Below are positions 20,439 to 51,285 of a DNA stretch of 64,000 nt, one piece after another. Positions within the stretch are counted from its first letter, which is position 1; each line of letters begins with the position of its first letter. Location of the stretch: assembly GCF_003387355.1 (NCBI RefSeq), contig NZ_QUNH01000001.1, forward strand, positions 754,023 to 818,022, in the 5' to 3' direction. Both the position numbers and the translations under genes were made by a program. The notes below the pieces were generated by a model that was not told the DNA's origin, made no database searches, and saw only the letters and a list, made by a program, of their open reading frames with translations. Origin of the DNA: Winogradskyella sediminis (GTDB lineage Bacteria; Bacteroidota; Bacteroidia; Flavobacteriales; Flavobacteriaceae).

Positions 20439-22166
20439 TTACTCATCTTCTAAAGTTACTGTTAGAATAGGAGCGGTTGCCCCTGATTCAGCACTGTCAA
20501 ATTGTAGATGTGCCCAAAGTGGCATGTCATTTCTGTTAGCACCAATTCTAAGAAACATAAATTCTCCAGCACTTGCGCCATTATCATATTGGTCGTTCAT
20601 AAAGGATGCTAAGTCTATCCCTGATGGATCGTCCATAACATATTCTCCAAGAGCATCTCCATCTGTAATAAATCCTTGTTGAATTGCAGTAGCATTTGCA
20701 TCGGTGTCATAATCTCCTGCAAAATAGTCTGTCGAAAGAACTTCGGAAGTTGACCTAGATGCTATAGCATATATATCGTATTCGACAACCTCCCATGAAT
20801 TATTATTAATGACATTGACCTTTAATACGGCTGATTTTACTCGTTTGCCCTCAGGTATTTCCGGTAAAGCAAATGGTATCACTCCAACGACCTGATCATC
20901 GCCTCCTATGCCTGTGGCAACATGCCCACCAAATAACTGAGTCCATGTAGCATCCACAGAGCCTCCACTCCAAATGGTAGCATCTCCTATGTCCGCAGTT
21001 ACATCGAAGGCTGCATTTGGATCCACAATCTCAATCGTGAAAGTTAACTCAGAGGACTCTACGCCATTGGTCGCAACTATGGTAATATCGTAAATGCCTA
21101 AATCACATCCTCCACAATTCGTATAAGGATCAAAAGTTATAACGCCTGAGCCAAAGCCGTTATCCACAAAGTTTGCGAATTGTGGTAAATCGTTGGCTTC
21201 CATAGTAATATTACCACCTAAAGGATCCACAGCTTCAATTTCTACGTCTAGAACGGCTCCTTCCGCTAATACAACATCATCCACAGCTAGAAAAACTGGA
21301 GCTTGATTTTGTGTTAGTGTCGTGATTTCCATATTTAAAACTCTATGCGTTCCAGGATCATCCAAATTAAAATTACCAGCGACCATAGACCAATAATCTT
21401 GGTGTGTAATTTTACGCCTAAATTTATAGTTTTCGCCAATTTGAACAACCTCTCCACCTTGCTCATTCGCGTATATATCATAAGTCATTGTAACAGCATC
21501 AACATCCATTTTTACATGATATGTTACGCCTGCATGATATTCTAGCTCGTTATCTGCTGCGTATCCAGTATCATCATAAGCATCTATTTTTCCTGAAGGA
21601 TTTAATCTTACAATGCATGAGTTATCTGAATACGTTGTTGCGATACCATCTAAAATACCAACAACACCATCCATGATGTCTTTACTAGGAATCATATCAA
21701 ACTCAACAGTAAATGTACCTGTTTGAGTGCCTTGCGGAATCGGAATAGATTGCCATTCGTTAATTCTACTCGTATAACCATCGAGATTACCTCTAAAATT
21801 AAAGACTACTGTTTTTTCATATCCGGAAGGTCGGGTCGCAATAAAATTAACCCTTTTGGACTCTTCTTCGGTAGGAGCGTAAGTATAGTTTAAGTCATTA
21901 CTTAATACTTCACCAGTTTCATCGTCCACCCATTGTACCATGGTGTCTTCACTAGGTGATACTTGTAGGTTTAAGTCTAATGTTTCTCCTATTAAAACAT
22001 CATAACCCTCCCATGCAATACCGGTTATATTATCTCCTTCACCCCAAAAATAAACGGTTAAATCCGTGTCAGATAGTGTTGGGTTTTTTACATCGTCTTG
22101 ACTGCAAGATGATGTAAGAAGTAATAAAAGACTAAAAATATAGGCACTATAATTCTTTATTTTCAT
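20439..22166 (-). CDS. Surface glycan-binding lipoprotein with a C-terminal DLYGLP-type module
   Basis: 575 residues; the signal peptide ends in a lipobox (LLTSSC). Next come an N-terminal Ig-like region, a concanavalin/LamG-like beta-sandwich (about 125-285) and a cadherin-like domain (about 290-388, NQAPVFLAVDDV). Last is a module at about 390-575 related to those of the secreted proteins at 38-51 kb (IPFALPEIPEGK, YDIYAIASR, LASFMNDQYDNGA). It is third in the susC-susD operon, the place of surface glycan-binding proteins. Unlike its module relatives it lacks a secretion tail, being anchored by lipid. Binding to the target polysaccharide is inferred from position and fold. Confidence 0.75.
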   Translation of the reverse strand: MKIKNYSAYIFSLLLLLTSSCSQDDVKNPTLSDTDLTVYFWGEGDNITGIAWEGYDVLIGETLDLNLQVSPSEDTMVQWVDDETGEVLSNDLNYTYAPTEEESKRVNFIATRPSGYEKTVVFNFRGNLDGYTSRINEWQSIPIPQGTQTGTFTVEFDMIPSKDIMDGVVGILDGIATTYSDNSCIVRLNPSGKIDAYDDTGYAADNELEYHAGVTYHVKMDVDAVTMTYDIYANEQGGEVVQIGENYKFRRKITHQDYWSMVAGNFNLDDPGTHRVLNMEITTLTQNQAPVFLAVDDVVLAEGAVLDVEIEAVDPLGGNITMEANDLPQFANFVDNGFGSGVITFDPYTNCGGCDLGIYDITIVATNGVESSELTFTIEIVDPNAAFDVTADIGDATIWSGGSVDATWTQLFGGHVATGIGGDDQVVGVIPFALPEIPEGKRVKSAVLKVNVINNNSWEVVEYDIYAIASRSTSEVLSTDYFAGDYDTDANATAIQQGFITDGDALGEYVMDDPSGIDLASFMNDQYDNGASAGEFMFLRIGANRNDMPLWAHLQFDSAESGATAPILTVTLEDE

Positions 22167-22177
22167 AATCTGTTTTT

Positions 22178-23842
22178 TTATAAATCAACTCCTCTTGTTA
22201 AACTATTATCCCACCAAACAGGTGCTCCCCAAAAATTCACACCATTATCCAAATGTGCTTCTAAATTGTCGCGATTAAAATTCATTTCACTATTAGGATA
22301 TGGTAATTTTCTAGGAATTAAACCATTTAGTGTTTGGTCCGTATAAGGGTTGTCAGTTGTTGGTTTAAGTACAGGGAAACCTGATCTTCTCCAGTTTGCG
22401 AAGCCCTCTATACCGTTATAAAAGTTATTAATATAATGTTGCATGTTTATAGCCTCCATTTTATCTGAAGTATTGTTCCATAAATTTTCAGCATAAACAT
22501 CTGAATTGATATCTAAATTAGGTTCAGCACCTAATATTGTTACTAGTTCATCAATGTTAGCAAAAATGGCATTTTTATAATGGGTTTTAGCATCACCACC
22601 AAAATTACTCCAACCTCTCTGTGCTGCTTCTGCCAGCCAAAGTTCTACTTCAGAATAGGATTGGTATATTGATGGCAAATCTATACGTGTTAAGTCTCTT
22701 CTTACTTGAAGTGATTTAAAATATTTATCAATTTGAACGGTTCTTCCATTTTTTTCAACAAAGCGTGGAGACCAAACATCGGCCGGTGCATCTTCAGCGG
22801 CTTCAAATAAGAAGTATCCAGGTGGATAGCCTTCAATAACTCCGTAAGTTGCTAAATATTCATCTGTAATCTCTACACTTGTTTCTGTTGAAGATTTAGA
22901 ATTATAACGTGATGTGGCATCTTCTTGGTAAGCAGCGTACATTCCGAACATCATTAAGAGTCTAGGGTCATCGTTGTCTCGCAAGTACGAGATATAGGTC
23001 TCACAGGCCACCATTATTTCCTCTGAAAAATTTTGGACTTGTGAAAATCCATTTCCTCTTATTTCTGAGGCACCACTTGTACTCACCGTAAAATCGCCAT
23101 GTTCTACTTTTGCAGCGTCATCAACATTTTCCATTACACCGTCTTCAATGGCTAATACGGCTTCTGTTTCAGCTTTAGACAAATTAACATTGACTAATCT
23201 CATGGCATATCTTAACCTTAAAGAATTTGCAAATTTTCTCCATCTTTCAACATCACCATTATACATTAAATCACCTTCTAAAGCTTTAGAGTCATCTAAT
23301 TGAGCGGCAGCTTCTTTCAATTCCTTAAAGAAATCATTATAAATATCTTCTTGATTATCATAAGCTGGATGTAAATTATCCTCTTCTGCTTGTGCACCAG
23401 CTTCAAAATATGGTAAATCGCCATAGGTGTCTGTGAGTTGAGCGAAAATCATGACTTTTAATATTCTTGCTACGGCTTCATAATTTACAAGTTCTGGATT
23501 CTGTTCAGCTTCTTGAATAGCGTATGTTAAATCACTGATTTCACGGTAAGAGCTTTTCCACATATACTCCATATAGCTTATATCGAGCTTGTAAGTTTGC
23601 CCATGTGATACCGTCCACCCGTCTGAAATCATTTGCGTAATAGACATGTGATACGCAGCTAGAGACCTCCATTGCGTTTCTCGATCTCCAGAGTAACTTG
23701 TTTGTACTTTAGAAATTAAGGTTTTAGGATTGGCAATTGTTGAGGTTGTTGGATCAACATTTAAGTCGTTAAAATCTTCGCAACTAGTGGTTAGTGTTAA
23801 AGTAGACACTAGTAATATTAATATCTTTATACTTGTCTTCAT
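22178..23842 (-). CDS. SusD-family nutrient-binding outer-membrane lipoprotein
   Basis: 554 residues with lipobox LTTSC and the SusD pattern: EDFNDLNVDPTT just after the anchor, TPR-like helices, and the C-terminal RRSGFPVL ... IPRKLPYPNSEMNFN segment. It belongs to the SusD-like_2 type. With the SusC porin encoded 3 bp upstream it forms the lid-and-channel complex that captures and imports oligosaccharides. Confidence 0.92.
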   Translation of the reverse strand: MKTSIKILILLVSTLTLTTSCEDFNDLNVDPTTSTIANPKTLISKVQTSYSGDRETQWRSLAAYHMSITQMISDGWTVSHGQTYKLDISYMEYMWKSSYREISDLTYAIQEAEQNPELVNYEAVARILKVMIFAQLTDTYGDLPYFEAGAQAEEDNLHPAYDNQEDIYNDFFKELKEAAAQLDDSKALEGDLMYNGDVERWRKFANSLRLRYAMRLVNVNLSKAETEAVLAIEDGVMENVDDAAKVEHGDFTVSTSGASEIRGNGFSQVQNFSEEIMVACETYISYLRDNDDPRLLMMFGMYAAYQEDATSRYNSKSSTETSVEITDEYLATYGVIEGYPPGYFLFEAAEDAPADVWSPRFVEKNGRTVQIDKYFKSLQVRRDLTRIDLPSIYQSYSEVELWLAEAAQRGWSNFGGDAKTHYKNAIFANIDELVTILGAEPNLDINSDVYAENLWNNTSDKMEAINMQHYINNFYNGIEGFANWRRSGFPVLKPTTDNPYTDQTLNGLIPRKLPYPNSEMNFNRDNLEAHLDNGVNFWGAPVWWDNSLTRGVDL

Positions 23843-23845
23843 TTT

Positions 23846-26800
23846 TTAAAATTTTGCAGTTAAGTTAAATCCGTAACTTCGTCTTTGTGGTAAAGAACCA
23901 TATTCATAGCCTTGCCCATTACTAATATTGTAAGTTGACTCTGGATCGACATTAGGTACATTTGAATGAATTAACCATAAATTTCTACCAATAATAGAAA
24001 AGGTTAAACCATTTAGGAATTTAATGTTTTTCAATTGTTCTGGGCTTAATGAATAAGACAAAGAAACTTCTCTTAATTTTACGTACGACGCATCGTAAAT
24101 GAATGGTTTTATAATATGTGAATTTGCAATACTGCCCCAATAATCTTTAGGATCTACATAAACATCATTGGCTCTATAGGTTGGGTTTCCATCTGCGCCA
24201 ACGCCATCCTCAATAACACCTTGTGCTAGATAACCACCTGTGGCAACCCAACTACTAGGTAATTCACCAGCACTTTCTCGTTCTGACTCGGATAGTGCCC
24301 ATCCTTCTCGTCCTTCTAAGGTTCCAATATGTGCTCCTTGTTGATATAACTTCTGATTAGTCATGGATAATATATCTGCGCCAGATTTAATTTGAATTAA
24401 AGCTCTTAACCTAAATCCTTTATATTGAATGCCGTTAGTTATACCTCCAGTGAATTTATATTGCCCATTGCCTAAAGACACTTGTTCGTCTGATCTTATC
24501 GGTAATCCATTAGCACCTAAAATAGGAGTACCATCTTCAGTACGTTTAAAGTCGTATCCTACAATATCTCCATAAGAACCGCCTTCTTCTGCAGTAATCA
24601 ATGAGCTGATCCAATCTGCTCTTGCAATGGTTTGTGTTTTTGCTTCTTCATGTAATTTTACAATTTTGTTCTCATTATTGGCAAAATTGAATGTTAAATC
24701 CCAACGTAGATCATCTGTTTTAATAGGTACGATATTTACCATAACCTCCCATCCTTTATTGTTGATTTCACCTGCATTAATACTAGCAGATTCAAAACCG
24801 TTTGAATTAGAAATAGGAATATTCATTATTTCGTCATAGGTAGTTTGATTGTAGTATGTGACATCTAAACCAACTCTCCAATTAAAAAGTTTTGCATCTA
24901 ATCCAAATTCATATCCTTTTGTTCTTGAGGGATTAATATTGGTAAAATAGGTGATATCATTTACGGTTGAAAAATTTGCTCCGTTTGACGAATACGGGTA
25001 ATCGAAAAAAGTATTATATGCATATGGGTCTGTATCACCACCAACTTCAGCATAGGAAGCTCTTAGTTTTGCATAAGATATCGTTTTCGACCTTAAATTT
25101 TCTATGGCCTTGGTTAAGACTAAAGCACCTGTAAATGATGGATAAAAATAGCCATTGTTTCCTTTTTTTAATGTAGAAGACCAATCTTGTCTGCCCGTGA
25201 CATCCAAAAAGGCATAATCTTTATAGCTAACATTGGCAAAGCCATAAAAAGACCTTACTTCCTTTCTTGGGTTTTCTCGTCCTACAATAAATTCGTTATA
25301 ATTATTTATAGAAATTACATCTTCTGAACCTTGATTTTTTCCAAGTATATTATTTGTTGAACTTTCATAATTCATAATGTTTCCACCAAGACTTGCTCCA
25401 ACGGTCCAATTATCGTTAAGCTCTTTATTCGCAGAAAGTAGAAATTCAGTATTAATTTCAGTAGTTCTTGAGTCTATTTTTGTTAGTTCTCCCCATTCAG
25501 CTAAAGGTGTTGTTCTTGGTGAATAATTATAATAATCATATGTAAATGTATCTATACCAGATTTGAATTTGAAATCTAACCAATCTGTGATATGATAGTT
25601 TAAAGAGGCATATCCTAAAACTCTATTCTTATTAGATTCATTTTTCATGTTATACAATGAATAGTAAGGATTGATAATTCGTGTTGCAGAATTCCAAAAC
25701 ACATAATCACCGTTGACATCCGTTGCACTATCTTGTAACCATTGCTGATCAATATTTCCTGGTAAGCCCAAAAGTGCTAATGCCGTATTTGCACCAGAAT
25801 AACCCAAATAAGGTCTATTATCTACATCTTCTAGAGTAAAATTAACTTTGGCATCTAAAGTTAATTTCTCCCACATTTTCATATGCCCTTTTAAAGTGAA
25901 GTTATTTCTATGTAAACCGCTATTTGGAACAATATCCTCCATTTTTACATCTGATGCAGAAAATAATAAGTTGGCAGATTCATTACCACCAGATAAAGAG
26001 ATAGTATTTTGAATGGTATAACCTGTTCTGAAAAAGGACTCAATATTATCTTTTTTTACACCATAATCTCTATACTGTCCATCGAAAGAGATGAATTGTA
26101 AATTTGGATCCATTTTACCACCCCAACTCCACATACCTGTAGCGTCACCTATATCTCTTGGAGGTGTTCCGATACCTTGACCATACACATGTTGAACATC
26201 TTCGTATCCACTTATGACCTCATCAAACGTAGAGTTTGTTGAAAAATTAATATTAAATTTAGATTTCGAATTCTTTTTAAACGATTTTGTTGTAATTAAA
26301 ATGACACCGTTTCCACCTCTAGAACCATATAACGCTGCTGCTGCAGGGCCTTTTAAAACAGATATCGTTTCTATGTCATCTGAGTTTACAGAAGAGATAC
26401 CATCTCCTAAATCTTGACCACCATATTGTCCGGCTTGCCCAAAAGAGTTGTTATCCATTGGTACACCATCAATGACGTATAGCGGTTGATTAGAGCCATT
26501 AAATTTTGTGTTTCCACGAATAATAATTTTAGATGAACCACCCGATCCTGTATTTGGTTGGGCAATATCTACACCGGCAACTTTACCAGCTAATGAGTTG
26601 ACTGCATTAATACTTTTTATTTCAGCGAGTTCTTCTCCATCAACCTTAGATATAGCATAGCCTAAAGCTTGTTCCTTACGTGAAATTCCTAAAGCAGTAA
26701 CCACGACTTCGTTAAGTGCCTCAACAGATTCAACCAATTGAATATTAATAACGGTATTATCTCCTATAGTTACCTTCTGTTCAGAGAAGCCAATATAGCT

Positions 26801-27031
26801 AAAGCGAAGTACGTCTCCTTTTTCTGCGTCTATTGAATAATCACCATTAAAATCAGTATTCGTTCCTTTGTTCTTACCTACGACAATGATCGATACACCT
26901 GGCATAGGCATTTCATCTTCTAATGAAGTCACTTTTCCAGTTATTTGAATTTCTTGAGCATGTAAAATTGAAAATGATGTAATTATAAAAACACAGAGAA
27001 ACGTAGAGAGTTTAAAATGTTTAATTCCCAT
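23846..27031 (-). CDS. SusC-family TonB-dependent transporter
   Basis: 1061 residues: signal peptide, carboxypeptidase-regulatory-like domain (about 28-110, GKVTSLEDEMPMPGVSIIV), plug domain (ALNEVVVTALGISRKEQAL to about 250, with LKGPAAAALYGSRGGNG) and a 22-strand barrel ending in the aromatic RRSYGFNLTAKF. It energises uptake of PUL oligosaccharides with TonB. Its promoter region carries the bipartite site and a TAnnTTTG box shared with the rhaEW and deacetylase genes. Confidence 0.95.
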   Translation of the reverse strand: MGIKHFKLSTFLCVFIITSFSILHAQEIQITGKVTSLEDEMPMPGVSIIVVGKNKGTNTDFNGDYSIDAEKGDVLRFSYIGFSEQKVTIGDNTVINIQLVESVEALNEVVVTALGISRKEQALGYAISKVDGEELAEIKSINAVNSLAGKVAGVDIAQPNTGSGGSSKIIIRGNTKFNGSNQPLYVIDGVPMDNNSFGQAGQYGGQDLGDGISSVNSDDIETISVLKGPAAAALYGSRGGNGVILITTKSFKKNSKSKFNINFSTNSTFDEVISGYEDVQHVYGQGIGTPPRDIGDATGMWSWGGKMDPNLQFISFDGQYRDYGVKKDNIESFFRTGYTIQNTISLSGGNESANLLFSASDVKMEDIVPNSGLHRNNFTLKGHMKMWEKLTLDAKVNFTLEDVDNRPYLGYSGANTALALLGLPGNIDQQWLQDSATDVNGDYVFWNSATRIINPYYSLYNMKNESNKNRVLGYASLNYHITDWLDFKFKSGIDTFTYDYYNYSPRTTPLAEWGELTKIDSRTTEINTEFLLSANKELNDNWTVGASLGGNIMNYESSTNNILGKNQGSEDVISINNYNEFIVGRENPRKEVRSFYGFANVSYKDYAFLDVTGRQDWSSTLKKGNNGYFYPSFTGALVLTKAIENLRSKTISYAKLRASYAEVGGDTDPYAYNTFFDYPYSSNGANFSTVNDITYFTNINPSRTKGYEFGLDAKLFNWRVGLDVTYYNQTTYDEIMNIPISNSNGFESASINAGEINNKGWEVMVNIVPIKTDDLRWDLTFNFANNENKIVKLHEEAKTQTIARADWISSLITAEEGGSYGDIVGYDFKRTEDGTPILGANGLPIRSDEQVSLGNGQYKFTGGITNGIQYKGFRLRALIQIKSGADILSMTNQKLYQQGAHIGTLEGREGWALSESERESAGELPSSWVATGGYLAQGVIEDGVGADGNPTYRANDVYVDPKDYWGSIANSHIIKPFIYDASYVKLREVSLSYSLSPEQLKNIKFLNGLTFSIIGRNLWLIHSNVPNVDPESTYNISNGQGYEYGSLPQRRSYGFNLTAKF

Positions 27032-27133
27032 AAAAAATTGAATTTAGAATTATAAGGCTTTTAAAGAAACGTCAAAAAAGTACCCCAAAAAGTTAGTTGT
27101 TAGTAATATAATAGCTAATTATTATAGTATTCT

Positions 27134-27251: not shown

Positions 27252-28478
27252 TTATATATTAGACCATCGAATTAAAGCCTCTAAATAGTAGTAGTCAGCA
27301 TAATTTAGTGGAGCATCGGTTTCATTATTTTCATGAAAATTGCCTACAGAATGTTTTAAGATAAAGCCTCCGTTTTCATTTTTTTGAGCTAAATAGTCAT
27401 CAGATGAAAGCGTTCTTAAGATGGTTTCGGTGTAATCTAAATATTCATTTTTACGCGCTGAATCAAATGCTTGTAATTCCAATAATGCTGATGCCACTAT
27501 AGCTGCTGCTGAGGCATCTCGAGGAATCTCTTCTGTACTTTCGGCATCATAATCCCAATAAGGAATATTATCATCAGGAATTTTATCGTTATTCATTATA
27601 TAATTAGCTATCTTCTTAGCGTGCTCTAGGAATATTTTATGTCCCGATTCTTTATAAGCTTCCGTATAGCCATATAAACCCCATGCCTGTCCACGTGCCC
27701 AAGCAGACTCATCAGCGTAGCCTTGAAAATTTACTTTTTTACGTACGTCTCCTGTAATATGGTCGTAGTCTATAATATGATAACAACTATAATCAGGTCG
27801 ATATTGGTTTTTAATCGATGTGGTTGCGTGTGCATTTGCAATATTTGAAAACGTTGAATCTGCCGTGTGCTTAGTGGCTTGATATAGTAAATTCAGGTTC
27901 ATCATATTATCAATAATAATAGGCATATCTAACCCTTTACCTTGAATCCATGGGGCATCTGTATCCCAAGACTGGATGACTTTTGCAACAGGTCGGTAAC
28001 GTGTACTTAAAGATCTTGCTGCATCAACAACGGCTTGTTTATAAGTTTCATTTCCGGTAAGACGATAGCCTTGTCCAAAAGAGTTTTGTATCATAAATCC
28101 AACATCGTGATTCCATTTTACAAATTGAGCAGAATCTAAGGCCTCTGTAAATTTTTCGGCCTCTATTTTCCACTTATTATCATTTGTTTGCTCGTATAAA
28201 TACCATAGTGAACCTGGAAAAAAACCACAAGTCCAGTCTTGTTTGTAAGCCATTCTAAGCGACCCATCCTTGTTTAAACTTCTAGGGTTCAATAATGGTG
28301 AAATAGTATCTATTTTATTTATTAAATAATCATACTGATGTTCTGCTAACGAAAAAACCCGTTTCACGAGTTCTTGCTTTGTTTCCTCAGTGTGTTCTTT
28401 AACTTCAACTTTATTTTTACACGATGTTAAAACTAAAATCGAAATTGTGATCGCTATAAATCTTATTGACAATGTCAT
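27252..28478 (-). CDS. GH88 unsaturated glucuronyl hydrolase, lipoprotein
   Basis: 408 residues; the signal peptide carries a lipobox (LVLTSC). The (alpha/alpha)6 barrel shows GH88 hallmarks: WTCGFFPGSLWYLYE near 85, HDVGFMIQNSFG near 125, MPIIIDNMMNLNLLY near 195 with the likely catalytic Asp, and AWARGQAWGLYGYTEAY near 262. GH88 hydrolyses the 4,5-unsaturated uronic acid from lyase products, giving the substrate of KduI. Being lipid-anchored, it acts outside the inner membrane, which fits a TRAP importer for the freed uronate. It is the last gene of the operon starting at 44527. Confidence 0.9.
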   Translation of the reverse strand: MTLSIRFIAITISILVLTSCKNKVEVKEHTEETKQELVKRVFSLAEHQYDYLINKIDTISPLLNPRSLNKDGSLRMAYKQDWTCGFFPGSLWYLYEQTNDNKWKIEAEKFTEALDSAQFVKWNHDVGFMIQNSFGQGYRLTGNETYKQAVVDAARSLSTRYRPVAKVIQSWDTDAPWIQGKGLDMPIIIDNMMNLNLLYQATKHTADSTFSNIANAHATTSIKNQYRPDYSCYHIIDYDHITGDVRKKVNFQGYADESAWARGQAWGLYGYTEAYKESGHKIFLEHAKKIANYIMNNDKIPDDNIPYWDYDAESTEEIPRDASAAAIVASALLELQAFDSARKNEYLDYTETILRTLSSDDYLAQKNENGGFILKHSVGNFHENNETDAPLNYADYYYLEALIRWSNI

Positions 28479-34865: not shown

Positions 34866-34916
34866 ATTTATTTTCAATATTATCTTTTATTAAAGTTCCT
34901 GAAAGAGGATTAATAA

Positions 34917-44300: not shown

Positions 44301-44527
44301 GATTCTCCAGGTTGTAAAACAGGTAATTGAAATGGAATAATATAGGCTTGTGCATTATTATGGCCTAACCTTGCGGTTGTTTGACCAACCCATCCCCAAG
44401 AGGTGTTATCGTTTTTAATGGTAATATCGTCTGAATGCGCTGAAATAATTTGAGAATTTTGTGCCTCTGCAGATATAATTCCTATTAATATCATTATAAA
44501 TGCATATTGAAATTTTATGATGTTCAT
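38351..44527 (-). CDS. Giant secreted multimodular protein: two beta-helices, F5/8-type module, two DLYGLP-type modules, type IX tail
   Basis: 2058 residues. Order: signal peptide; DLYGLP-type module (about 25-190); cadherin-like domain; beta-helix 1 (about 309-722, starting YYCDPINGNINNDGS and ending GAYEY); two cadherin-like domains; beta-helix 2 (about 929-1346, YYCDPINGSMSNPG to GAFEL). Then come an SbsA-like Ig domain, an F5/8-type (CBM32-like) module (about 1452-1575), two cadherin-like domains, a second DLYGLP module (about 1776-1957) and a Por secretion tail (SVYPNPINEGKVTIS). The helices have NNxI-type coils as in PL6-like lyases and epimerases, but the catalytic residues are not identified. 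It is first in an operon with the lyase, esterases and glycosidases, and a LacI-type operator core lies 21 bp upstream. Confidence 0.8.
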   Translation of the reverse strand: MNIIKFQYAFIMILIGIISAEAQNSQIISAHSDDITIKNDNTSWGWVGQTTARLGHNNAQAYIIPFQLPVLQPGESITTADLAVEVISYSNQPSNTNIDLYGLPFRTTSTVDLNTDYFVGALDTSATLIQDNIFEDNVTGLVNLDSNTQQNLVSYLNAQYSAGAVGGDFVFIRFSADANSSETWNLASQDNGTTSNRPILDIAISNTSNTTPTLTFIGNQNVQEQSTLNVNISASDMDGDALSITSSTLPSFATLIDNGDGTAVMSLNPQLGDASTYSVTITVSDGIETVTETISIVISAYQTPVAGVYYCDPINGNINNDGSQANPWSTLAAVVYTNKPLNSGDIIYLMSGDHGDPYINNMSFNDYVTVKALSGNAPVIKSIQLVNSSYWAFDGIKIDGTNNNKTKEQVLFSSDVNSHHTKIVNSTISSAENIETWTKTDWYNNVTSGIQIRSDYAFLENNVIKNTYHALEVRGEFTEVHNNLIDNFAGDAIRSLGSNSTYENNTVRDCYINDYAIQHDDGFQAYNLQSDPKISNITLRNNVFMLFADPVTPFVQSNNLIGGLMQGIIITDGYADGWIVENNIVSNNQDHGISLYGARNCKVQNNTVVQSPLYSDADHVPWIMLTDQTKTGQTNFNNVIRNNISAKYTTWTYDTTSTVEHNITIDGSNYANYSNYFVDYVTNDFHLSATSPAIDAGVDTDLAVTDLEGNPRSMGTSVDAGAYEYTGTVAPPANNAPILASIGGKTMNELETLEVSISATDSDNDTLTFSITNAPNFTTFVDNGNGTASLTLSPQIGDANSYNITVSVTDGTDSIEEIILVTINPEGTAPLNNAPIIANVTNQAVEEDNILNVNISVTDSDNDTLTITSTSLPNFATFTDHGDGTALFEFTPSEGDAGTYTIDVQASDTIDTTTLNFVVSVSEIINVAGTAYYCDPINGSMSNPGTLASPWKSLQDVFTAQKTFNSGDVIYLLSGAHGSPYMTGTHSDYVTIKPLSGEHPVLASVQVENGSYWAFDGLTFSTDGSGGNFARDYMFLTKDDATYLKIENCTFSSANDSSTWSKNDWYANSEDAVIIRGDNIIFNNNTIKNVYFALQIEGDYAEIRNNLIDNFGADAIRALGSHAIYENNIIRDAYIEDYNINHDDGIQMYDKDNVAAGTIEDVVIRNNKIFNFADPITQAMVNDNLIGYSMQGIIITDGHTENVIVENNLVVSDHYHGITLTGAINCKIQNNTVSKTPTSYNPVTDAIPWIQIKNDKQGNGSTGNIIRNNIAAKYTPWTYDETTNTVEYNIVVSAIDAINTYEDFNNLDFNLKAGSSAIDAGVNAGLTTLDINGDPRSVGAAVDCGAFELQASADITSPVIVNANNTFFNDEFVIVFSESVTNASSELPGNYTLSGGATISSASLSEDNKTVTLTCSALNGNTTYTITANNVEDYAGNTASNSSATFIYECDTNWASTYQDDEWAYNPSSNAFDGDNQTKWAAEGNQWIQKSFCEIVTVQSVDISFGLGDERAYSFVIEVSTDGRNFTQVHSATSTGTTTAAEHFDFVDVSAKYIRIVGSGSDVNGWNNYSEIVINTSGYTPPTNTAPVLLPIGNQTITEGDILNIIVSATDTDGDTLSFTANNLPSFVTFIDNNDNTATLTIAPAIGDASTNNISISVNDGTTIDTETLNIIVNNDSTTANNAPVLSTLVSQTLNVDDVKIINISATDADADALSFAINNAPGYATLVDNGDRTATITLSPISGDEGTSNITVTVYDGELNDSAILNIQVYALPQQNNYIVEAVMDDQTVYDNGGMQWVGYHTHRIGSNNKTSAIIPFQIPTLAQNERLTSATLNFHLLQNGGNLAHKVDLYGLPYRSSSTILSTDYYAGVYDTDLTATAIEDDILDLNSPQGNLQSSSSQNIVNYINNQLDNGAVTGDFIFFRFSLDYNGSGNYNYWDIASQDHTTSSYRPVLNFDTAFTLGKAYNNNTKEILEIENSTVSVYPNPINEGKVTISSRMLNQKSTLEIYSLTGRLVFKQHVQPTQSNTMHADIQLNSGVYILKLRNTSKIFTQKLIVN

Positions 44528-44806: not shown

Positions 44807-44839
44807 GAAAACGAGGGCATATATTAATCCCTCGTTTTC
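44807..44839 (-). terminator. Intrinsic terminator
   Basis: GAAAACGAGGG (44807-44817) pairs perfectly with CCCTCGTTTTC (44829-44839), an 11-bp stem with an 11-nt loop, just downstream of the stop codon at 44855. It ends the operon of the deacetylase-like and tandem-module genes. Confidence 0.75.
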
Positions 44840-44854
44840 AAAAATTGCTATTAA

Positions 44855-46495
44855 TTACTGAATGATTAATTTTTGTGTTTTAGAACGCGTTCCATCTTGA
44901 AGTTTAACGATATACACACCTGATTTTAAATTTAATGTTGTGTTAAAAGAATTTGCCAAATTTGCTTCAACTTTTTCAGAATGGACTAACTGACCTGTTA
45001 TTGAGAAAATAGTTAATTTAGAATCATTACTAAATCCGTTTGATGTAATTGTTAACTTACCATCAGTTACAGGGTTTGGATATAATTTTAAAGTTGATTT
45101 TTCTACGCTATCTACAGATAATTCACCATCTATAGAAATTGATAACGTTGGTGCATTAGCAGTTGAACCATCGTCAACTCCAAAATAATGAGCACCAGTA
45201 GTTGCTGGGTCATCTACATTTAATCTTAAAAACACATAATCACCTTCAACTGCACCAGCATCATATTGCGCATTTAAATAGTCTACTAAAGCATTATCTC
45301 CATTAGCATTTGTTTCTTCAAAACGTGCAGTATCTAAAGATCCAGCATCTACATTTTTTGAAAAGTAATCATCCTGAATTGCTGTAACATCAGCTGTAGC
45401 ATCTGGATACGCGCCATCATAATGGTCTGCAGGATAAATAGTGCTAGCCGCATTATAAGGAAGTCCATATAAATCGACATTAGAAGATATCCATTCGCGA
45501 CCATAATTGACATGTACTTTTAAATTTGCAGAAACTACCAACTGACCTGATGGACGCGCAGGTAATTTAAATGGAATAATACCACTTGTTGTAACTGGGC
45601 TTCCGTCTGCAGCACTTGCTCCTATTTTTAACGAATTTATTCCGCCAACATTATTTCCATTCAAATAAGGATTGTTAGCAGGCAAAGCAGTTATATCAGA
45701 AACAATACCATCAACGTGGTAAGCTTGATCTAAAACCATCTCTGGCACCAAATCATAATCTGTTGTTGGGCTTACCTCAGCATCTTCTACTTCTATAGTT
45801 AATGTTGGTGCGTTTGCAGTTGAACCATCATCAACTCCAAAATAATGAGCTCCAGTAGTCGCTGGGTCATCTACATTTAATCTTAAAAACACATAATCGC
45901 CTGCAACCGCACCAGCATCATATTGTGCATTTAAGTAGTCCACTAAAGCGGTATCTCCACCAGCATTTGTCTCTTCAAAACGTGCTGTATCTAAAGATCC
46001 AGGGTCAACATTTTTTGAAAAGTAATCATCTTGAATTCCTGTAACATCAGCTGTAGCATCCGGGTAGGCATCATCAAAATGGTCTGCAGCATAAATAGTG
46101 CTAGCCGCATTATAAGGAAGTCCATATAAATCGACATTGGAAGATATCCATTCACGACCATAATTGACATGTACTTTTAAATTCGCATTAACTACTAATT
46201 TTCCTTCTGGGCGCACAGGTAGTTTAAAAGGTATGATGGCACTTGTTGTATTTGGGCTTCCGTCTGCAGCACTTGCTCCTATTTTTAACGAATTTATTCC
46301 GCCTACATTATTTCCATTTAAATAAGGGTTATTTGCAGGCATAGCAGTTATATCAGAAACAATACCATCGACATGATAGGATTGATCTGTAACAATTTCT
46401 GGTGTAACATCATAGGATGTTGTTTGGGCTTGTAATGCAAATGGTGTCACACCTAATGCAATTCCCAATAAAGAATTTAGTAGCGTTGTTTTCAT
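44855..46495 (-). CDS. Secreted protein made of two nearly identical DLYGLP-type modules and a type IX tail
   Basis: 546 residues. After a signal peptide come two copies of one domain, about 28-243 and 244-455, each with NNPYLNGNNVGGINSLKIG, IIPFKLP, SSNVDLYGLPYN and VDYLNAQYDAGA. They are followed by a secretion tail (LKLYPNPVTDGKLTIT). No catalytic domain is present, so it looks like a secreted binding or adhesive protein. The copies differ at only a small share of positions, pointing to a recent internal duplication. It follows the deacetylase-like gene by 24 bp. Confidence 0.75.
   Translation of the reverse strand: MKTTLLNSLLGIALGVTPFALQAQTTSYDVTPEIVTDQSYHVDGIVSDITAMPANNPYLNGNNVGGINSLKIGASAADGSPNTTSAIIPFKLPVRPEGKLVVNANLKVHVNYGREWISSNVDLYGLPYNAASTIYAADHFDDAYPDATADVTGIQDDYFSKNVDPGSLDTARFEETNAGGDTALVDYLNAQYDAGAVAGDYVFLRLNVDDPATTGAHYFGVDDGSTANAPTLTIEVEDAEVSPTTDYDLVPEMVLDQAYHVDGIVSDITALPANNPYLNGNNVGGINSLKIGASAADGSPVTTSGIIPFKLPARPSGQLVVSANLKVHVNYGREWISSNVDLYGLPYNAASTIYPADHYDGAYPDATADVTAIQDDYFSKNVDAGSLDTARFEETNANGDNALVDYLNAQYDAGAVEGDYVFLRLNVDDPATTGAHYFGVDDGSTANAPTLSISIDGELSVDSVEKSTLKLYPNPVTDGKLTITSNGFSNDSKLTIFSITGQLVHSEKVEANLANSFNTTLNLKSGVYIVKLQDGTRSKTQKLIIQ
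45131..46414 (-). repeat. Tandem duplication of about 640 bp inside the two-module gene
   Basis: The stretches near 45131-45766 and 45767-46414 encode the two module copies and share long identical runs at DNA level, for example around the SSNVDLYGLPY codons (45470-45500 and 46130-46160). Boundaries are approximate. Confidence 0.7.
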
Positions 46496-46519
46496 AGTTT
46501 ATTGTTTTAAAGAATTAGT

Positions 46520-48844
46520 TTATTGTATGATTAGTTTTTGTGTTTTTTGGGCTATACCATCGGATATCTTAAGAAGATATAGCCCAGCATTTAAATTCAA
46601 ATTTGTTTCAAAATTTGAACTTGAATTGCTTGTAATTATTTCACTATGAACTAAACTACCTGTTAAAGAATAGATGTTTAGTTTCGTGTTTTCTGATTTA
46701 AATCCTTTTAATACGATGGTTAATTTGCCTTCTGTTACTGGATTTGGATAAAGGCTTACATTTGATTGATCGAAAGCATCAACGCTTAAAACATTTTCAA
46801 TTTCTAACGTTAAAGTGGGTGCTTCTTCTGTTGATTCATCACTTATACCGTAATAATGGGCACTTGTAGAACCTGCTGTAGCATCTACACTTAACCTTAA
46901 AAAAATGTAATCTCCTGCAACGGCACCTGCATCGTATTGCGCATTTATGTATGCTGCTAGGTTGGTATCACCTTCCGAATCCGTATCTACTTGTCGGTCT
47001 GTTAAAATTAAGGTGCCAACAGGTTCATTGCCATCTACATCTCTAACAATAAATCCATCTTGTAGTCCTGTTGCTGTTCCTGTGGTGTTAGCAAAAGAGC
47101 CATCATAAAAATCATTTGGAGATATAGTGTTAGAGCTATTATATGGTAATCCGTATAAGTCGATGTCAGAAGAAATCCAGTGTCTTATGTAGGCAATGTT
47201 CACATTTAAATTAGCGGCTGTTACTAATTTACCAGGTGGACGAACAGGTAATTGAAAAGGAATTATAGCATTTGTTGTAAATCCACCACCAGTTGATGCA
47301 CTTGCTCCAACTTTTAAGACTTTGGTGCCATCGATGTCGTTTCCATTAAGCCATGGATTTGTACTACCCTCTTCTAAATTAACAACATCAGATATGATAC
47401 CATCACCAGTAGGTGTTATTATGTATTCTGTCGTTGGTTCTCCACCAGAATCAGGACTAACCGTTAAGTTAAAAGATTGTGATGTGATACTCCTTCCATT
47501 ATCTGCAATGACGGTAATATCTTGGTAATCACCAGCATCTAAAAGTGCAGGTGAAAATATAATGCTTCCAGTATTGTCGCCATTGTCAGTTAAGACTCCA
47601 AAACTTGGTAGGTTAGATGTTGTAAAAGAAATGGGATCATCACCAACTGTAGCTGCTGAAAAATCTAATTGTAATGTAGCTTCTTCAACCATAGATTGAT
47701 TTTCTATAGAAGGAGAAATTATTGCAGGGTCCGAATCTGCAACACCTGCTATTGTAACTTGACCTGCGTCTGGTACAGTTTTTACTAACGTATATTTTTT
47801 ACCATTATGTGTTATGATTTCAGAGTCTATAGGCTCTCCATTTTGTATGGCGGTAACATTGACCCAACTATTGTCAATTCTTATTTTAACAGTTAAAGGA
47901 AAATAAAAAGCGGCGTCTAACATGTCGTCTGTTAATGTGTATTTTATTTCACTTTCTGAAACATTATCTATGGTTAAATTATGCGTTGCAAAAGATTGAG
48001 AGTATTGTGTAACCTCTGTAAATCCGGCAACCCACAATTCTGGTTTGTTTGCTAAGTATTGTAAAAATTCATTAGTGGTAATTTCACCAGCCTCATCTAG
48101 ACCATGGAAATGTGTACTGCCCCAACCACGATAGTAATTTGTGCCGTATAATGTATTTTCGTTGTCCAAAAGTGGTAATATATACTGGTCTCGGTCTGTA
48201 TCGTTACCGTAAATATGAACATTAGAAATGCTATTAACATCTAAATAATTAACAGTGTTAGATTGATTTAGAATGCCTTGGGTGCCTCTAATTCCAATAA
48301 ATTGTGTTCTAGCAATGGTTTCATTACCTTCTCCATAAGGATAGGCATAGGTTAAACATTTATTAGAGCCAGAAGTTACTTCTGTATCAATAGTGGCAAC
48401 TGTGGCTTGTAATTTTGCGAGATAATCCGCATCAGACAGGTTGGTTTCTCCTTCTGCTGGGTTAGTATACCAATTTCTATCATCGTGTCCATCTATTTGA
48501 CTTCCTAAAGCCGCAAGGTCATTATAAAGACTCCAATCTTGAACATTATATGCCGGATCTGCCTCAGTAATCACAAACCACGAAAAATGGAACCCATATT
48601 CAGCAATCATCGATGTCCAAAAAGGAATATCTTGTTCGTTATTATCATCAATGGTGATTGTGAATGCGGCTAATTTGTCATCATTCCATAAGCAGACATC
48701 TCCTTCACCTACGACTTCTGGCCAAACTTTATCTGTTACTGTAAACCTTGTTCCGACAGCCGGATCGAGATTAAAAGTGTTTTGTCCAATCGATTGTATG
48801 AAAATCATTAAGAAGACGAAAAGGGTAATATTTTTTTTAAACAT
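46520..48844 (-). CDS. Secreted polysaccharide-deacetylase-like protein with DLYGLP-type module and type IX tail
   Basis: 774 residues: signal peptide; a NodB-like domain (about 45-260) with FTITIDDNNE near 56 (the two Asp), QIDGHDDRNW near 112 and TYAYPYGEGN near 145; an Ig-like domain (about 365-465, SIENQSMVEEATLQL); a DLYGLP-type module (about 472-690); and a secretion tail. The second motif lacks the usual second metal His (Asn/Trp instead of HxxxH), so the activity may be altered. It heads a two-gene operon driven by the promoter at 48919-49015. Confidence 0.75.
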   Translation of the reverse strand: MFKKNITLFVFLMIFIQSIGQNTFNLDPAVGTRFTVTDKVWPEVVGEGDVCLWNDDKLAAFTITIDDNNEQDIPFWTSMIAEYGFHFSWFVITEADPAYNVQDWSLYNDLAALGSQIDGHDDRNWYTNPAEGETNLSDADYLAKLQATVATIDTEVTSGSNKCLTYAYPYGEGNETIARTQFIGIRGTQGILNQSNTVNYLDVNSISNVHIYGNDTDRDQYILPLLDNENTLYGTNYYRGWGSTHFHGLDEAGEITTNEFLQYLANKPELWVAGFTEVTQYSQSFATHNLTIDNVSESEIKYTLTDDMLDAAFYFPLTVKIRIDNSWVNVTAIQNGEPIDSEIITHNGKKYTLVKTVPDAGQVTIAGVADSDPAIISPSIENQSMVEEATLQLDFSAATVGDDPISFTTSNLPSFGVLTDNGDNTGSIIFSPALLDAGDYQDITVIADNGRSITSQSFNLTVSPDSGGEPTTEYIITPTGDGIISDVVNLEEGSTNPWLNGNDIDGTKVLKVGASASTGGGFTTNAIIPFQLPVRPPGKLVTAANLNVNIAYIRHWISSDIDLYGLPYNSSNTISPNDFYDGSFANTTGTATGLQDGFIVRDVDGNEPVGTLILTDRQVDTDSEGDTNLAAYINAQYDAGAVAGDYIFLRLSVDATAGSTSAHYYGISDESTEEAPTLTLEIENVLSVDAFDQSNVSLYPNPVTEGKLTIVLKGFKSENTKLNIYSLTGSLVHSEIITSNSSSNFETNLNLNAGLYLLKISDGIAQKTQKLIIQ

Positions 48845-49161
48845 TTGATTTTTATTGGGAATTATTATTTGCTTCTGTGTTTGATATAGATATGGCTAAA
48901 AACAGAAAGCGCTACTCTCAAATATAAATACAAATAGCTGACTAATCCTAGTGTTTTCCGTGCTTAGCTCAATAAAACAGACAAAACTAACAAACAATTA
49001 AACAGATAGTATAAACTTCAATTGTGCTTTTTGAGAATAATTGGTGAAATGTAGATAATTTTTATGAGAAATTTAAATTTTGCAAAATCAATTGTCAATT
49101 TAATAACTTTTAGGTGTGATTAAGTGTAATTTGTTAAAATTTAATTATGTAACATCATCAA
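48845..49161. other. Intergenic region of 317 bp
   Basis: Holds the promoter and bipartite site described separately. The remainder, towards the end of the beta-helix gene at 49162, is AT-rich with no clear terminator hairpin. Confidence 0.5.
48919..49015 (-). promoter_or_regulatory. Promoter of the deacetylase-like gene with bipartite site
   Basis: On the plus strand, CAAATATA (48919-48926) is the complement of the -7 box TATATTTG. AGACAAA begins at 48979 and CAGATAGTATAAA spans 49003-49015. Element spacing is 24 bp, and the CAG element begins 84 bp from the -7 box. The segment ACTAATCCTAG (48940-48950) is also shared with the rhaEW promoter. Confidence 0.7.
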
Positions 49162-51285
49162 TTACCAAACGAAGAAAATTTGTTTTTTTGTTTCACCTTC
49201 AGTAGTATATTCTAATAAGTATTTGCCAGTAGGTAGTTGTAATTTTTCACTTCGAAAAACATCGCCTGAAAGGTCAGAAGTATTTATAGTCTGTTCAAAA
49301 ACCTGCTCACCTGAAAAATTCAGCAATTTAAGTTGTACAGTTTTACCTTGTTTAAAACCTAAGAAGTAAACATTAAATTCTCCATTATACATAGAGTTTG
49401 GTGCAATAACGACATTATTTTTAATAGATTCGATATTGTTGGTGGCCTCTTCATTAAGTTCAGGGTATCCAACAGTAATTTCAAGTGTTGGTTGGTTTTC
49501 TTTTTTGTTACCGTTAGCGCTTACAAAGTTCCATCTATTATAATCTGAAACATCCTTGGAGTTTGGGTTCATTCTTAAAAAGATATAGGCCTCAGAGTTT
49601 GTTTCTGCTTCAAAAATGGTGTTCAAGTAATCTTTGAGTCCTTTTTGCCCAAGGTTATTTGTTTTAATGTCTCCAGAATACATATTGGAGTCTACAAAAT
49701 TATTCTGAATGGGTCTTGCCGAAACATCTTGTCCAAAAGTACCTTGATAATAGAGGTCTTCAGTAACCCAAAAATTTGATTTTGGAGGCAACGCATATAA
49801 ATCAATGCCTCCTTCTGGTTGATTATCTATTTTAGACAAATACACTTTAAAATTAGCAGATAGAATTTTTTTGCCTCCAGGGATTTCTGGAAGCTTAAAT
49901 GGGAAGACTCCAGCACCGTCAATATTTTCGCCAACACCTCCAATACGAATTTGTGGTTGGCCATCCCAGTCTCCTTTACCTTTGGAGTGAATCTGTCTAT
50001 CTGAAGCTTCCGAAGGTATTTCAAAAACCTGATTAGCCTCATCAATTTTAGTATACTCAAAGGCTCCAATATTAACAAAGTAACCTAAGGACCGTTTGTT
50101 TTGACTTGCGTCTAAATTTGGTGCCATATCCGATGTTCCACTGTTCAGAGCTTTTGAATTAGGGCCTAAAGAGAAATCAAACAAAGCCCAATTATTAAAG
50201 CATTTGTCATAATCATGTACGGAGACAGGAAGCGTTAGATTATAATCAGCAATCCCTTTTATGTTCTTAAATAGGACATCATTAGACAGGTTATTTCTTA
50301 TAAACAGATTTGAAGAATCATTTTCGCCAATGATCTGTATGGCAAGTGGTGCATTTGTTTCGCTTTTATCGTTGAAATTTAAACCAAAATAGGGATTTAC
50401 AACTGTATTATTAATGATTTTTAGATTGTTCAATTGACCAGTAAGAGATATCCCTTTTATACCATTTGTAATAATAACATTATTCTCAAATATACTTTCT
50501 GAAATAATGGTTTTCAATCCATAAATACCATTTAATACTCCTATTTGCGCTCTATTTGATTTGGTGAAATTGATAATTGTATTACCTCTAAAAATGTTAC
50601 CTTTTGTTTCTTTCTCGGTAAAATATATACCAGAATTTACTTCAGCATCTGTGGCTATACTTTCTTTAATTAAGTTGTATTCTAATAAATTATAATCTGC
50701 TAAAATCGTAATGGCATTATGGCTGAAAAACTCGATACGGTTATTCCGAATTTGAGTTTTTTCACCAGAAACTATAATGCCGTTTTTGTAATTCGAAATG
50801 ACATTACTTTCTATTTTACATTGCTTACCTTTGATCTCAATCGCAGTGTAATGGTTGGCGTTTGAAATAAAATTATTTTCCGTTAATCTGATCTTAGAAC
50901 TATTTTGATGTATAAAAACAGTATTTGAATGTAGGGCTCCATTGAAAGTAATGTTATTAAGAATCCACTTGGATGCAGGAGATTCTTCAGTTCCAAATGT
51001 TATAGCATTTATTGTAGGATTTTGGCCTGTAAGTCCGGAAATAGTAATATATTTTTCGTTTTGGCCTATAACTTTAACGTCTCCATGATTTCCGGAAAGT
51101 AAGAATATAGCATCACCTGCTTTAAATTCTATTCCTTTTCCAAAAACACTTTCTAAGCTTCCCCAAGGATTAGCTTTACTTCCGTCGTTATTTGTATTCC
51201 CGTTTACCGGGTCACAATAGAAATCAGTTGCGTAGGTCGCTTGTGCGAATAAGAAGAAAAGAAAGAAGTAGCCGTAAGTTTTCAT
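49162..51285 (-). CDS. Secreted right-handed beta-helix protein with DLYGLP-type module and type IX-like tail
   Basis: 707 residues: signal peptide; beta-helix (about 20-405, starting FYCDPVNGNTNNDGSKANPW, with many NNxI coils and ending GAFEY); one module (about 415-625, GVFPFKLPEIPGGKK, GGIDLYALPP, LKDYLNTIFEAET); and a divergent secretion tail (NGEFNVYFLGFKQGKTVQL ... LPTGKYLLEYTT). The helix resembles both helices of the giant protein; a PL6-like lyase or a binding role are both open. It lies 12 bp after lldD, so it is probably transcribed with the rhamnose genes. Confidence 0.75.
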   Translation of the reverse strand: MKTYGYFFLFFLFAQATYATDFYCDPVNGNTNNDGSKANPWGSLESVFGKGIEFKAGDAIFLLSGNHGDVKVIGQNEKYITISGLTGQNPTINAITFGTEESPASKWILNNITFNGALHSNTVFIHQNSSKIRLTENNFISNANHYTAIEIKGKQCKIESNVISNYKNGIIVSGEKTQIRNNRIEFFSHNAITILADYNLLEYNLIKESIATDAEVNSGIYFTEKETKGNIFRGNTIINFTKSNRAQIGVLNGIYGLKTIISESIFENNVIITNGIKGISLTGQLNNLKIINNTVVNPYFGLNFNDKSETNAPLAIQIIGENDSSNLFIRNNLSNDVLFKNIKGIADYNLTLPVSVHDYDKCFNNWALFDFSLGPNSKALNSGTSDMAPNLDASQNKRSLGYFVNIGAFEYTKIDEANQVFEIPSEASDRQIHSKGKGDWDGQPQIRIGGVGENIDGAGVFPFKLPEIPGGKKILSANFKVYLSKIDNQPEGGIDLYALPPKSNFWVTEDLYYQGTFGQDVSARPIQNNFVDSNMYSGDIKTNNLGQKGLKDYLNTIFEAETNSEAYIFLRMNPNSKDVSDYNRWNFVSANGNKKENQPTLEITVGYPELNEEATNNIESIKNNVVIAPNSMYNGEFNVYFLGFKQGKTVQLKLLNFSGEQVFEQTINTSDLSGDVFRSEKLQLPTGKYLLEYTTEGETKKQIFFVW

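What the first reader, a model, noticed from the sequence alone, without database searches (positions are those of the whole stretch)
20439..51285. Seven copies of an uncharacterised IPFxLP...DLYGLP module in five PUL proteins
A domain of about 180-210 residues, marked by IPFxLP, (V/I)DLYGLPY (or relatives), DYLNAQYDAGA and a final FLRLN strand, occurs in five proteins. These are the surface lipoprotein (C-terminal), the giant protein (both ends), the two-module protein (two copies), the deacetylase-like protein and the beta-helix protein. It accompanies lipid-anchored and type IX-secreted proteins alike and has no catalytic look. It resembles DNRLRE-type beta-sandwiches, some of which bind polysaccharide. 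A locus-wide carbohydrate-binding module for the target glycan is likely.
Basis: partly seen in the sequence, partly recalled or inferred. Interest (0 to 1): 0.78.

Follow-up and report, generated by a model that had tools for sequence, protein, structure and literature searches.

The report
Seven sugar-binding-like modules, one locus
A bacterium of a marine genus carries seven copies of an unnamed protein module, all in one gene cluster for eating a rhamnose- and uronic-acid-containing sugar polymer, and the predicted shape says it is a new relative of known sugar-gripping domains, though binding itself has not been tested.

Summary
Seven copies of a ~180-220-residue module lie in five proteins of one polysaccharide utilization locus; leave-one-out profiles recover each copy at E 6.3e-29 or better. 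The 99.9%-complete genome shows these seven and no others. Seven more Flavobacteriaceae carry 7-8 copies, each set within 25-41 kb of one contig. The module is rare (3 of 299 sampled Flavobacteriaceae, own genome included). Diverged copies occur in 20 of 387 Verrucomicrobiota, some fused to PL42-like rhamnose-glucuronate lyases, acetylesterases or sulfatases.

The predicted structure (pLDDT 88) matches best, on a DALI-like scale, the chondroitin-sulfate CBM 8wab and the alginate CBM 7vbo (Z 14.4, 14.0; next 9.8). No copy reaches the Pfam CBM96 or NCBIfam DNRLRE cut-off; the W-x-E motif of the CBM96 sample and its conserved arginine are missing.

Verdict: most likely a sister family to CBM96, used locus-wide to bind a rhamnose/glucuronate glycan. 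Binding and ligand are inferred, not shown.

The parts
20442..21014 (-). Module 1: C-terminal module (residues 385-575) of the surface lipoprotein 20439-22166
   Evidence: leave-one-out E 5.8e-37
38663..39199 (-). Module 2: C-terminal module (residues 1777-1955) of the 2058-aa protein
   Evidence: leave-one-out E 3.2e-42
43913..44461 (-). Module 3: N-terminal module (residues 23-205) of the 2058-aa protein
   Evidence: leave-one-out E 3.1e-44
45131..45763 (-). Module 4: second module (residues 245-455) of the two-module protein
   Evidence: both tandem copies left out, E 7.8e-46
45764..46420 (-). Module 5: first module (residues 26-244) of the two-module protein; head of the structure prediction
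   Evidence: both tandem copies left out, E 1.4e-45
46793..47437 (-). Module 6: residues 470-684 of the deacetylase-like protein
   Evidence: leave-one-out E 1.9e-49
49471..50043 (-). Module 7: residues 415-605 of the beta-helix protein
   Evidence: leave-one-out E 6.3e-29
20439..22166 (-). Candidate surface glycan-binding lipoprotein next to SusD; lipoprotein-like N-terminus (read by eye), sub-threshold PKD_3 and sialidase-CBM-like matches, C-terminal module
   Evidence: role inferred from position
22178..23842 (-). SusD-like (PF12771)
   Evidence: E 2.8e-73
23846..27031 (-). SusC-like TonB-dependent receptor (plug and CarbopepD_reg_2 domains)
27252..28478 (-). GH88-type unsaturated glucuronyl hydrolase
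   Evidence: 3wiw E 2.9e-109
28502..30160 (-). MFS sugar transporter
30161..32467 (-). GH94-family protein
32487..34877 (-). alpha-L-rhamnosidase-like (Bac_rhamnosid domains)
34917..36416 (-). SASA carbohydrate acetylesterase-like
36438..37289 (-). PL14-like polysaccharide lyase
   Evidence: E 5.4e-43; alginate lyases, VAL-1
37297..38331 (-). alpha/beta-hydrolase esterase
38351..44527 (-). Giant secreted protein: module, Ig-like, beta-helix, Ig-like, beta-helix, F5/8 C (CBM32-like), Ig-like, module, type IX tail
   Evidence: first beta-helix by alignment and model
44855..46495 (-). Two-module protein with type IX tail and no recognised catalytic domain
46520..48844 (-). Polysaccharide deacetylase-like (sub-threshold PF01522), module, type IX tail
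   Evidence: 20.6 bits; cut-off 23.1
49162..51285 (-). Beta-helix protein, module, sub-threshold type IX-like tail
51298..57235 (-). FMN-dependent dehydrogenase, rhamnulokinase-like FGGY kinase, isomerase-like TIM barrel, bifunctional rhamnulose-1-phosphate aldolase/dehydrogenase

Best explanation
The module is a non-catalytic glycan-binding domain of a family not modelled in Pfam or NCBIfam: a sister to CBM96/DNRLRE in the same fold. In this locus it is put on the cell-surface lipoprotein, on secreted beta-helix proteins, on a deacetylase-like protein and on a free two-module protein, so that capture and cutting of one glycan happen together. Shown: seven homologous copies, confinement to this locus, linkage with the same SusD and enzymes in other genera, fusion to carbohydrate-active enzymes in another phylum, and a predicted fold matching solved CBMs best on the DALI-like scale. 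Inferred: that it binds glycan, that the ligand is a rhamnosyl-glucuronate (or other rhamnose/uronate) motif, and that the binding face corresponds to the CBM96 groove but with other residues, so the ligand is not read as alginate is.
For: Model pLDDT 88.4, pTM 0.86. VIA-align Z 14.4 to 8wab (4.4 A over 168 residues) and 14.0 to 7vbo (3.6 A over 165); next 9.8. A profile of CBM96/DNRLRE rows (A3) recognises these two chains and no other in the PDB at E up to 1 and aligns colinearly with the modules. Partners in Verrucomicrobiota: of 25 carrier proteins scanned, 9 have a polysaccharide-active domain over Pfam's cut-off (4 BNR_4 from 3 genomes, 3 SASA from 2, 2 sulfatase from 2) and 5 others (2 genomes) a separate CBM96. 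The BNR_4 carriers L109 and L038 match PL42 L-Rha-alpha-1,4-GlcA lyase at 7.7e-53 and 9e-49, and 4 of 4 BNR_4 carriers keep the five active-site residues named in the PL42 abstract, at a numbering offset of +2. The window locus has PL14-like, GH88, rhamnosidase-like and rhamnose-catabolism genes. In a sample of 298 genomes the SusD ortholog was found in the same three genomes as the module. Position 194, close to the one aligned with CBM96 Tyr159 (my reading; within two residues), is aromatic in 45 of 50 rows. Single-module verrucomicrobial proteins (L126, L127, L039) and the window's two-module protein show that it can stand alone.
Against: No binding data. By Foldseek E-value BcsB and the BMP9 prodomain rank level with or ahead of 7vbo and 8wab (1.6e-4 to 2.6e-4), so fold alone does not prove binding; the sequence link to CBM96 is weak (hhalign probability 52.5). 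Modules are very acidic (median net charge -14.5, against -8.5 for the CBM96 sample), awkward for a polyanion ligand unless calcium or neutral rhamnose is read. The CBM96 ligand residues Lys27 and Arg36 align with invariant Gly48 and with S/T/A-type positions. Of 25 verrucomicrobial carriers, 11 showed neither an enzyme domain over the cut-off nor CBM96, and many of those loci showed no rhamnose-related neighbour in the stretch fetched.
Confidence: 0.7

Rival explanations
1. Structural beta-sandwich: a spacer or stabilising cap beside the type IX tail or beta-helix, with no ligand.
For: Most conserved positions are G, P, D and hydrophobic types; CBM96 ligand residues are not kept; the fold also occurs in proteins without known glycan binding.
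Against: A two-module protein with no other recognised domain but a sorting tail is kept in 5 of 5 loci compared; placement on the SusD-adjacent lipoprotein; 7-8 copies in one locus and none elsewhere in the six Flavobacteriaceae whose candidates were all scored; fusion to three kinds of polysaccharide-active enzyme.
Confidence: 0.15
2. Protein-protein docking module: copies bind one another or a shared partner, so that the two-module protein scaffolds the secreted enzymes on the lipoprotein, a cellulosome-like assembly.
For: Two modules and no enzyme in 44855-46495; its tandem copies resemble each other within Winogradskyella and within Polaribacter; same module on lipid-anchored and secreted parts.
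Against: Verrucomicrobial genomes G684 and G686 have one copy each, so no partner module; the nearest solved relatives by sequence kinship and DALI-like score bind glycans.
Confidence: 0.07
3. Glycan-binding, but for adhesion to or retention in extracellular polysaccharide rather than for degradation.
For: Single-module verrucomicrobial proteins with PEP-CTERM-like tails (L039 sub-threshold in Pfam; L126 and L127 by eye); DNRLRE domains are reported in archaeal disaggregatase and S-layer proteins (passage in PMC9971899).
Against: In the eight Flavobacteriaceae the copies found sit in one locus, which in the window and five others is degradative.
Confidence: 0.08

Closest known systems
CBM96 (PF24517; founding member TM6-N4, PDB 7vbo)
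   Same: Predicted fold, Z 14.0, 3.6 A over 165 residues; colinear profile alignment; attached to polysaccharide-active enzymes
   Different: 12% identity in the structural alignment; below the Pfam cut-off on 7 of 7; W-x-E in 2 of 50 modules against 26 of 26 CBM96/DNRLRE rows; Arg36 equivalent absent, Lys27 position a glycine; more acidic
DNRLRE domain (NF033679; PDB 8wab, chondroitin-sulfate-binding module of a chondroitinase)
   Same: Best structural match, Z 14.4, 14% identity; sub-threshold profile hits on 5 of 7 copies
   Different: No copy reaches the 34-bit cut-off (best whole-protein score 31.9)
BcsB and TGF-beta-family prodomains
   Same: Shared arrangement, Z about 8-10, top Foldseek E-values; the CBM96 paper reports the same prodomain resemblance for CBM96 itself (passages)
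   Different: Weaker than the CBM matches on the DALI-like scale; no sequence match to them in the PDB with the module profiles

Membership tests
CBM96 (PF24517) | Pfam gathering score 26 bits | tested here: not met
   One of 7 window modules matches at all, 15.5 bits; 10 of 10 verrucomicrobial modules without any Pfam match at E 0.1
CBM96 (PF24517) | CBM96 fold | tested here: met
   Z 14.0 to 7vbo, 3.6 A, 165 residues, on a predicted model
CBM96 (PF24517) | W-x-E motif, present in 26 of 26 sampled CBM96/DNRLRE rows (my own hallmark, from A3) | tested here: not met
   2 of 50 modules contain W-x-E anywhere
CBM96 (PF24517) | Ligand residues Lys27 and Arg36 (called relatively conserved in PMC9971899) | tested here: not met
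   Arg36: R in 23 of 26 A3 rows, R once in 50 modules over positions 58-61. Lys27: position is G in 50 of 50 modules, but K in only 10 of 26 A3 rows, so a weak marker. The alignment is at 11% identity; shifts of a residue are possible
CBM96 (PF24517) | Alginate binding | not testable with these tools
   Needs protein and ITC or affinity gels
DNRLRE domain (NF033679) | NCBIfam cut-off 34 bits | tested here: not met
   Best 31.9 bits for the two-module protein; 5 of 7 single modules match sub-threshold
Carbohydrate-binding module (generic) | Discrete domain appended to different carbohydrate-active enzymes | tested here: met
   BNR_4/PL42-like lyase, SASA esterase and sulfatase partners over cut-off
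Carbohydrate-binding module (generic) | Demonstrated glycan binding | not testable with these tools
Carbohydrate-binding module (generic) | Not already a numbered CAZy family | not tested
   CAZy/dbCAN models are not among the libraries

The most novel reading that the evidence does not exclude
A 'one ligand, one module, whole locus' design: a previously unmodelled CBM family, shared by Flavobacteriaceae and Verrucomicrobiota, that reads the L-rhamnosyl-D-glucuronate motif and is stamped on the extracellular arms of one utilization locus (surface lipoprotein, beta-helix proteins, deacetylase-like protein, free tandem binder). Its presence would then be a sequence marker for degraders of rhamnose-glucuronate glycans.
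Probability: 0.45. Interest if true: 0.7.

Novelty: new variant of a known kind. Interest (0 to 1): 0.55.

Why it matters
To my knowledge few binding modules are known for rhamnose- and uronate-rich algal glycans. A module found in about 1% of sampled Flavobacteriaceae, with 7-8 copies in one locus in each of the eight genomes found, would be a sharp genomic marker for degraders of one such glycan and a ready-made probe (44855-46495 is a natural tandem binder without a recognised enzyme). It also suggests that the CBM96/DNRLRE superfamily is wider than its present models, and that locus-wide reuse of one binding domain, on lipid-anchored and type IX-secreted parts alike, has been kept through genus divergence.

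Tried and rejected
Membership in CBM96 or DNRLRE was considered and rejected as filing, although kinship stands. CBM27 (E 0.084, one copy) and Glyco_hydro_25 (E 0.019) matches were dismissed as weak. PDB sequence searches with the module profiles found nothing credible (best E 0.095, none). tblastn of the two-module protein against the plasmid collection found no match. The beta-helix partner was modelled (pLDDT 90.8); it matches a BT_1002 hydrolase, AlgE epimerases, Pel9A, rhamnogalacturonan lyases and PL6 lyases at Z 23-28 among many other beta-helices, tailspikes included, and lacto-N-biosidases lead by Foldseek, so no enzyme name is claimed.

Literature: searches were seen as listings with the starts of abstracts. 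Searches (Rieske, methyl rhamnose, demethylation, polysaccharide utilization; 3 of 4 terms; polysaccharide lyase family 14, rhamnosidase, Flavobacteri, surface glycan-binding; 3 of 4) returned 0 papers. Of PMC9971899 I saw passages, the abstract among them, and of PMC10951650 the outline with abstract and start of the introduction. No search for the module in print beyond these was made.

Rows and limits: A2 used 43 of 52 distinct locus modules (9 near-copies from W. marina and W. psychrotolerans left out) plus 7 from the window. A3 used 24 of the 30 CBM96 loci plus 2 loci. Two verrucomicrobial carriers (L117:5548-8070, L128:2779-5955) were not scanned against Pfam. The A2 profile contains three verrucomicrobial rows, so the 20 of 387 count is not fully independent, and that search scored at most 8 candidates a genome; at most 11 were scored, so the copy numbers of Flavicella and Tamlana are lower bounds.
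Full report
OBSERVATION. The seven copies are real. Translation of the five reading frames shows the module in each; the alignment has 13 invariant columns among 230; identities run from 22% to 54%, with 88% for the tandem pair. To exclude circularity I left out each copy (or both tandem copies), rebuilt the profile and searched 160 window reading frames: every left-out copy came back at E 6.3e-29 to 1.9e-49, and nothing outside the module regions reached E 0.5. Searching the whole 3.80-Mb, 99.9%-complete genome gives the same seven places and no eighth, with all 16 first-look candidates scored.

SURROUNDINGS. The modules lie in one polysaccharide utilization locus on the minus strand. Beside the five carriers it has SusC and SusD, a GH88-type unsaturated glucuronyl hydrolase (3wiw, E 2.9e-109), an MFS sugar transporter, a GH94-type protein, an alpha-L-rhamnosidase-like protein, a SASA acetylesterase-like protein, a PL14-like lyase and an esterase. 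Next to it are an FMN dehydrogenase, a rhamnulokinase-like kinase, an isomerase-like protein and a rhamnulose-1-phosphate aldolase/dehydrogenase. The target therefore probably contains uronate (lyase plus GH88) and L-rhamnose. The lipoprotein 20439-22166 sits where surface glycan-binding proteins usually sit (PUL anatomy, recalled), with the module at its C-terminus.

DISTRIBUTION. In a sample of 299 Flavobacteriaceae genomes 3 have the module (own, Flavicella sediminum, Tamlana haliotis, names by contig); in the genus 4 of 68; in a sample of 395 Bacteroidota only the own genome. Together with three Winogradskyella, Polaribacter marinus and the MAG BB35, eight Flavobacteriaceae carry 7, 7, 7, 7, 8, 8, 8 and 8 copies, every set on one contig within about 25-41 kb. 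All candidates were scored in six of these genomes; in Flavicella and Tamlana 11 of 14 and 11 of 17 were. The SusD of the window has an ortholog (E up to 1e-100) in the same 3 genomes and no other of a sample of 298 (at most 4 candidates a genome scored). Five loci compared gene by gene (W. thalassocola, Polaribacter, Flavicella, Tamlana, MAG) keep SusC, SusD, lipoprotein, GH88, rhamnosidase-like, SASA, PL14, esterase, two-module, deacetylase-like and beta-helix proteins in 5 of 5; the transporter, GH94, FMN dehydrogenase and rhamnose genes in 4 of 5 (not in the fetched Flavicella stretch); the giant protein at or near full length in 3 of 5. W. marina and W. psychrotolerans were not compared in this way.

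EVOLUTION. In a maximum-likelihood tree of 50 modules, the positional classes (lipoprotein, beta-helix C-terminal, giant N-terminal, giant C-terminal, and a third beta-helix protein that the window lacks) are each one side of a branch with bootstrap 100 across genera, so these copies split before the genera did. The tandem copies behave otherwise: in Winogradskyella and in Polaribacter first and second copies group within the genus, in Tamlana and the MAG the second copies form their own pair, and in Flavicella the second copies lie with the deacetylase type, as expected from gene conversion or repeated duplication. The root and deep branches are weak and several long branches meet, so I claim no order among classes.

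RELATIVES OUTSIDE. 20 of 387 Verrucomicrobiota genomes match at E up to 1e-5 (the profile includes three verrucomicrobial rows). Of 25 carrier proteins scanned with Pfam (two more not scanned) 4 carry BNR_4, 3 SASA and 2 sulfatase domains over the cut-off, 5 carry a separate CBM96, one is a beta-helix protein like the window's (25.4 bits, cut-off 25.9), and the remaining ten have no clear enzyme assignment, among them short single-module proteins (L126, L127, L039). BNR_4 carriers L109 and L038 match PDB L-rhamnose-alpha-1,4-D-glucuronate lyase (PL42) at 7.7e-53 and 9e-49, far above ulvan lyases at about 1e-6; the carriers L111 and L123 are 68% and 40% identical to L109 in that domain. The residues that the PL42 abstract names (Asp83, His85, His105, Tyr150, Arg166) sit, at a constant numbering offset of +2, on D, H, H, Y and R in 4 of 4 carriers; the same abstract says that the His-His-Asp motif is shared with PL24 and PL25. 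The Cerasicoccus carrier lies near a rhamnosidase-like gene, and one sulfatase carrier (L122) near a rhamnulose-phosphate aldolase homolog. So the rhamnose-glucuronate theme recurs in a second phylum; many of the other loci show no such neighbour in the stretch fetched.

STRUCTURE AND KINSHIP. The model of module 45764-46420, with 50 rows, has pLDDT 88.4 and pTM 0.86 and is nearly all beta, with one long helix. Foldseek is modest and does not single out CBMs: BcsB and BMP9 prodomain chains (1.6e-4, 2.0e-4) stand just ahead of 7vbo and 8wab (2.6e-4 each). The DALI-like second look does: 8wab, a chondroitin-sulfate-binding module (Z 14.4, 4.4 A, 168 residues), and 7vbo, the CBM96 alginate module (Z 14.0, 3.6 A, 165 residues), against 9.8 for the next. 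Both are the only PDB chains matched at E up to 1 by a profile of CBM96/DNRLRE rows, and that profile aligns with the modules from end to end (hhalign probability 52.5, E 1.4e-4 for one comparison, 11% identity). At family level they differ: no module reaches the Pfam or NCBIfam cut-off; W-x-E is in 26 of 26 A3 rows and 2 of 50 modules; the position of CBM96 Arg36 is R in 23 of 26 A3 rows and R once in 50 modules over positions 58-61; Lys27 aligns with a glycine invariant in 50 of 50, though only 10 of 26 A3 rows have K there. CBM96 ligand residues are from passages of PMC9971899. An aromatic residue within two places of the Tyr159-equivalent is kept in 45 of 50 modules. The own genome has no CBM96 at the search threshold of 1e-10.

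MECHANISM. Most likely the module grips a rhamnose/glucuronate-containing glycan through an aromatic-lined face, holds it at the outer membrane (lipoprotein), keeps secreted beta-helix and deacetylase-like proteins on the substrate, and, in the two-module protein, raises avidity or carries fragments. Shown: homology, confinement, linkage, partner enzymes, predicted fold. Inferred: binding, ligand, face. The strong negative charge (median -14.5) counts against simple electrostatic capture of a polyanion and suggests calcium or recognition of neutral rhamnose; that is a guess to be tested.

VERDICT. It is a new variant of a known kind; whether CAZy has numbered it could not be tested.

Noticed in passing
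window 16261-20296 (+): A 777-aa protein fusing a fatty-acid-desaturase-type domain, a Rieske domain and an NAD-binding reductase domain, followed by creatininase-like and aldo/keto-reductase genes. The trio is kept with the locus in 5 of 5 other Flavobacteriaceae compared, at the other end of it in the MAG; it could be an oxidative demethylase for an O-methylated sugar (guess).
   Followed up: partly
window 57653-58735 (-): FGE-sulfatase-type (formylglycine-generating-like) gene next to the locus although no sulfatase was recognised among the locus genes scanned; no match in the fetched stretches of the other five loci.
   Followed up: no
window 44855-46495 and orthologs: Tandem modules resemble each other within Winogradskyella and within Polaribacter, while single modules stay distinct by position, suggesting gene conversion; in Flavicella the second module is of the deacetylase type and a second two-module gene is present.
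   Followed up: partly
L032:9788-12718: Polaribacter marinus has a second two-module gene, 977 codons stop to stop, with about 450 residues of unassigned sequence before its type IX tail, about 28 kb from the first.
   Followed up: no
L115, L116, L118 (Verrucomicrobiota): SASA-type esterases followed by two to five modules in tandem.
   Followed up: partly
window 42344-43615 and 40472-41746 (-): Two beta-helix domains of the giant protein, 49% identical, with a confident model resembling epimerases, PL9 and PL6 enzymes among others; activity unassigned.
   Followed up: partly
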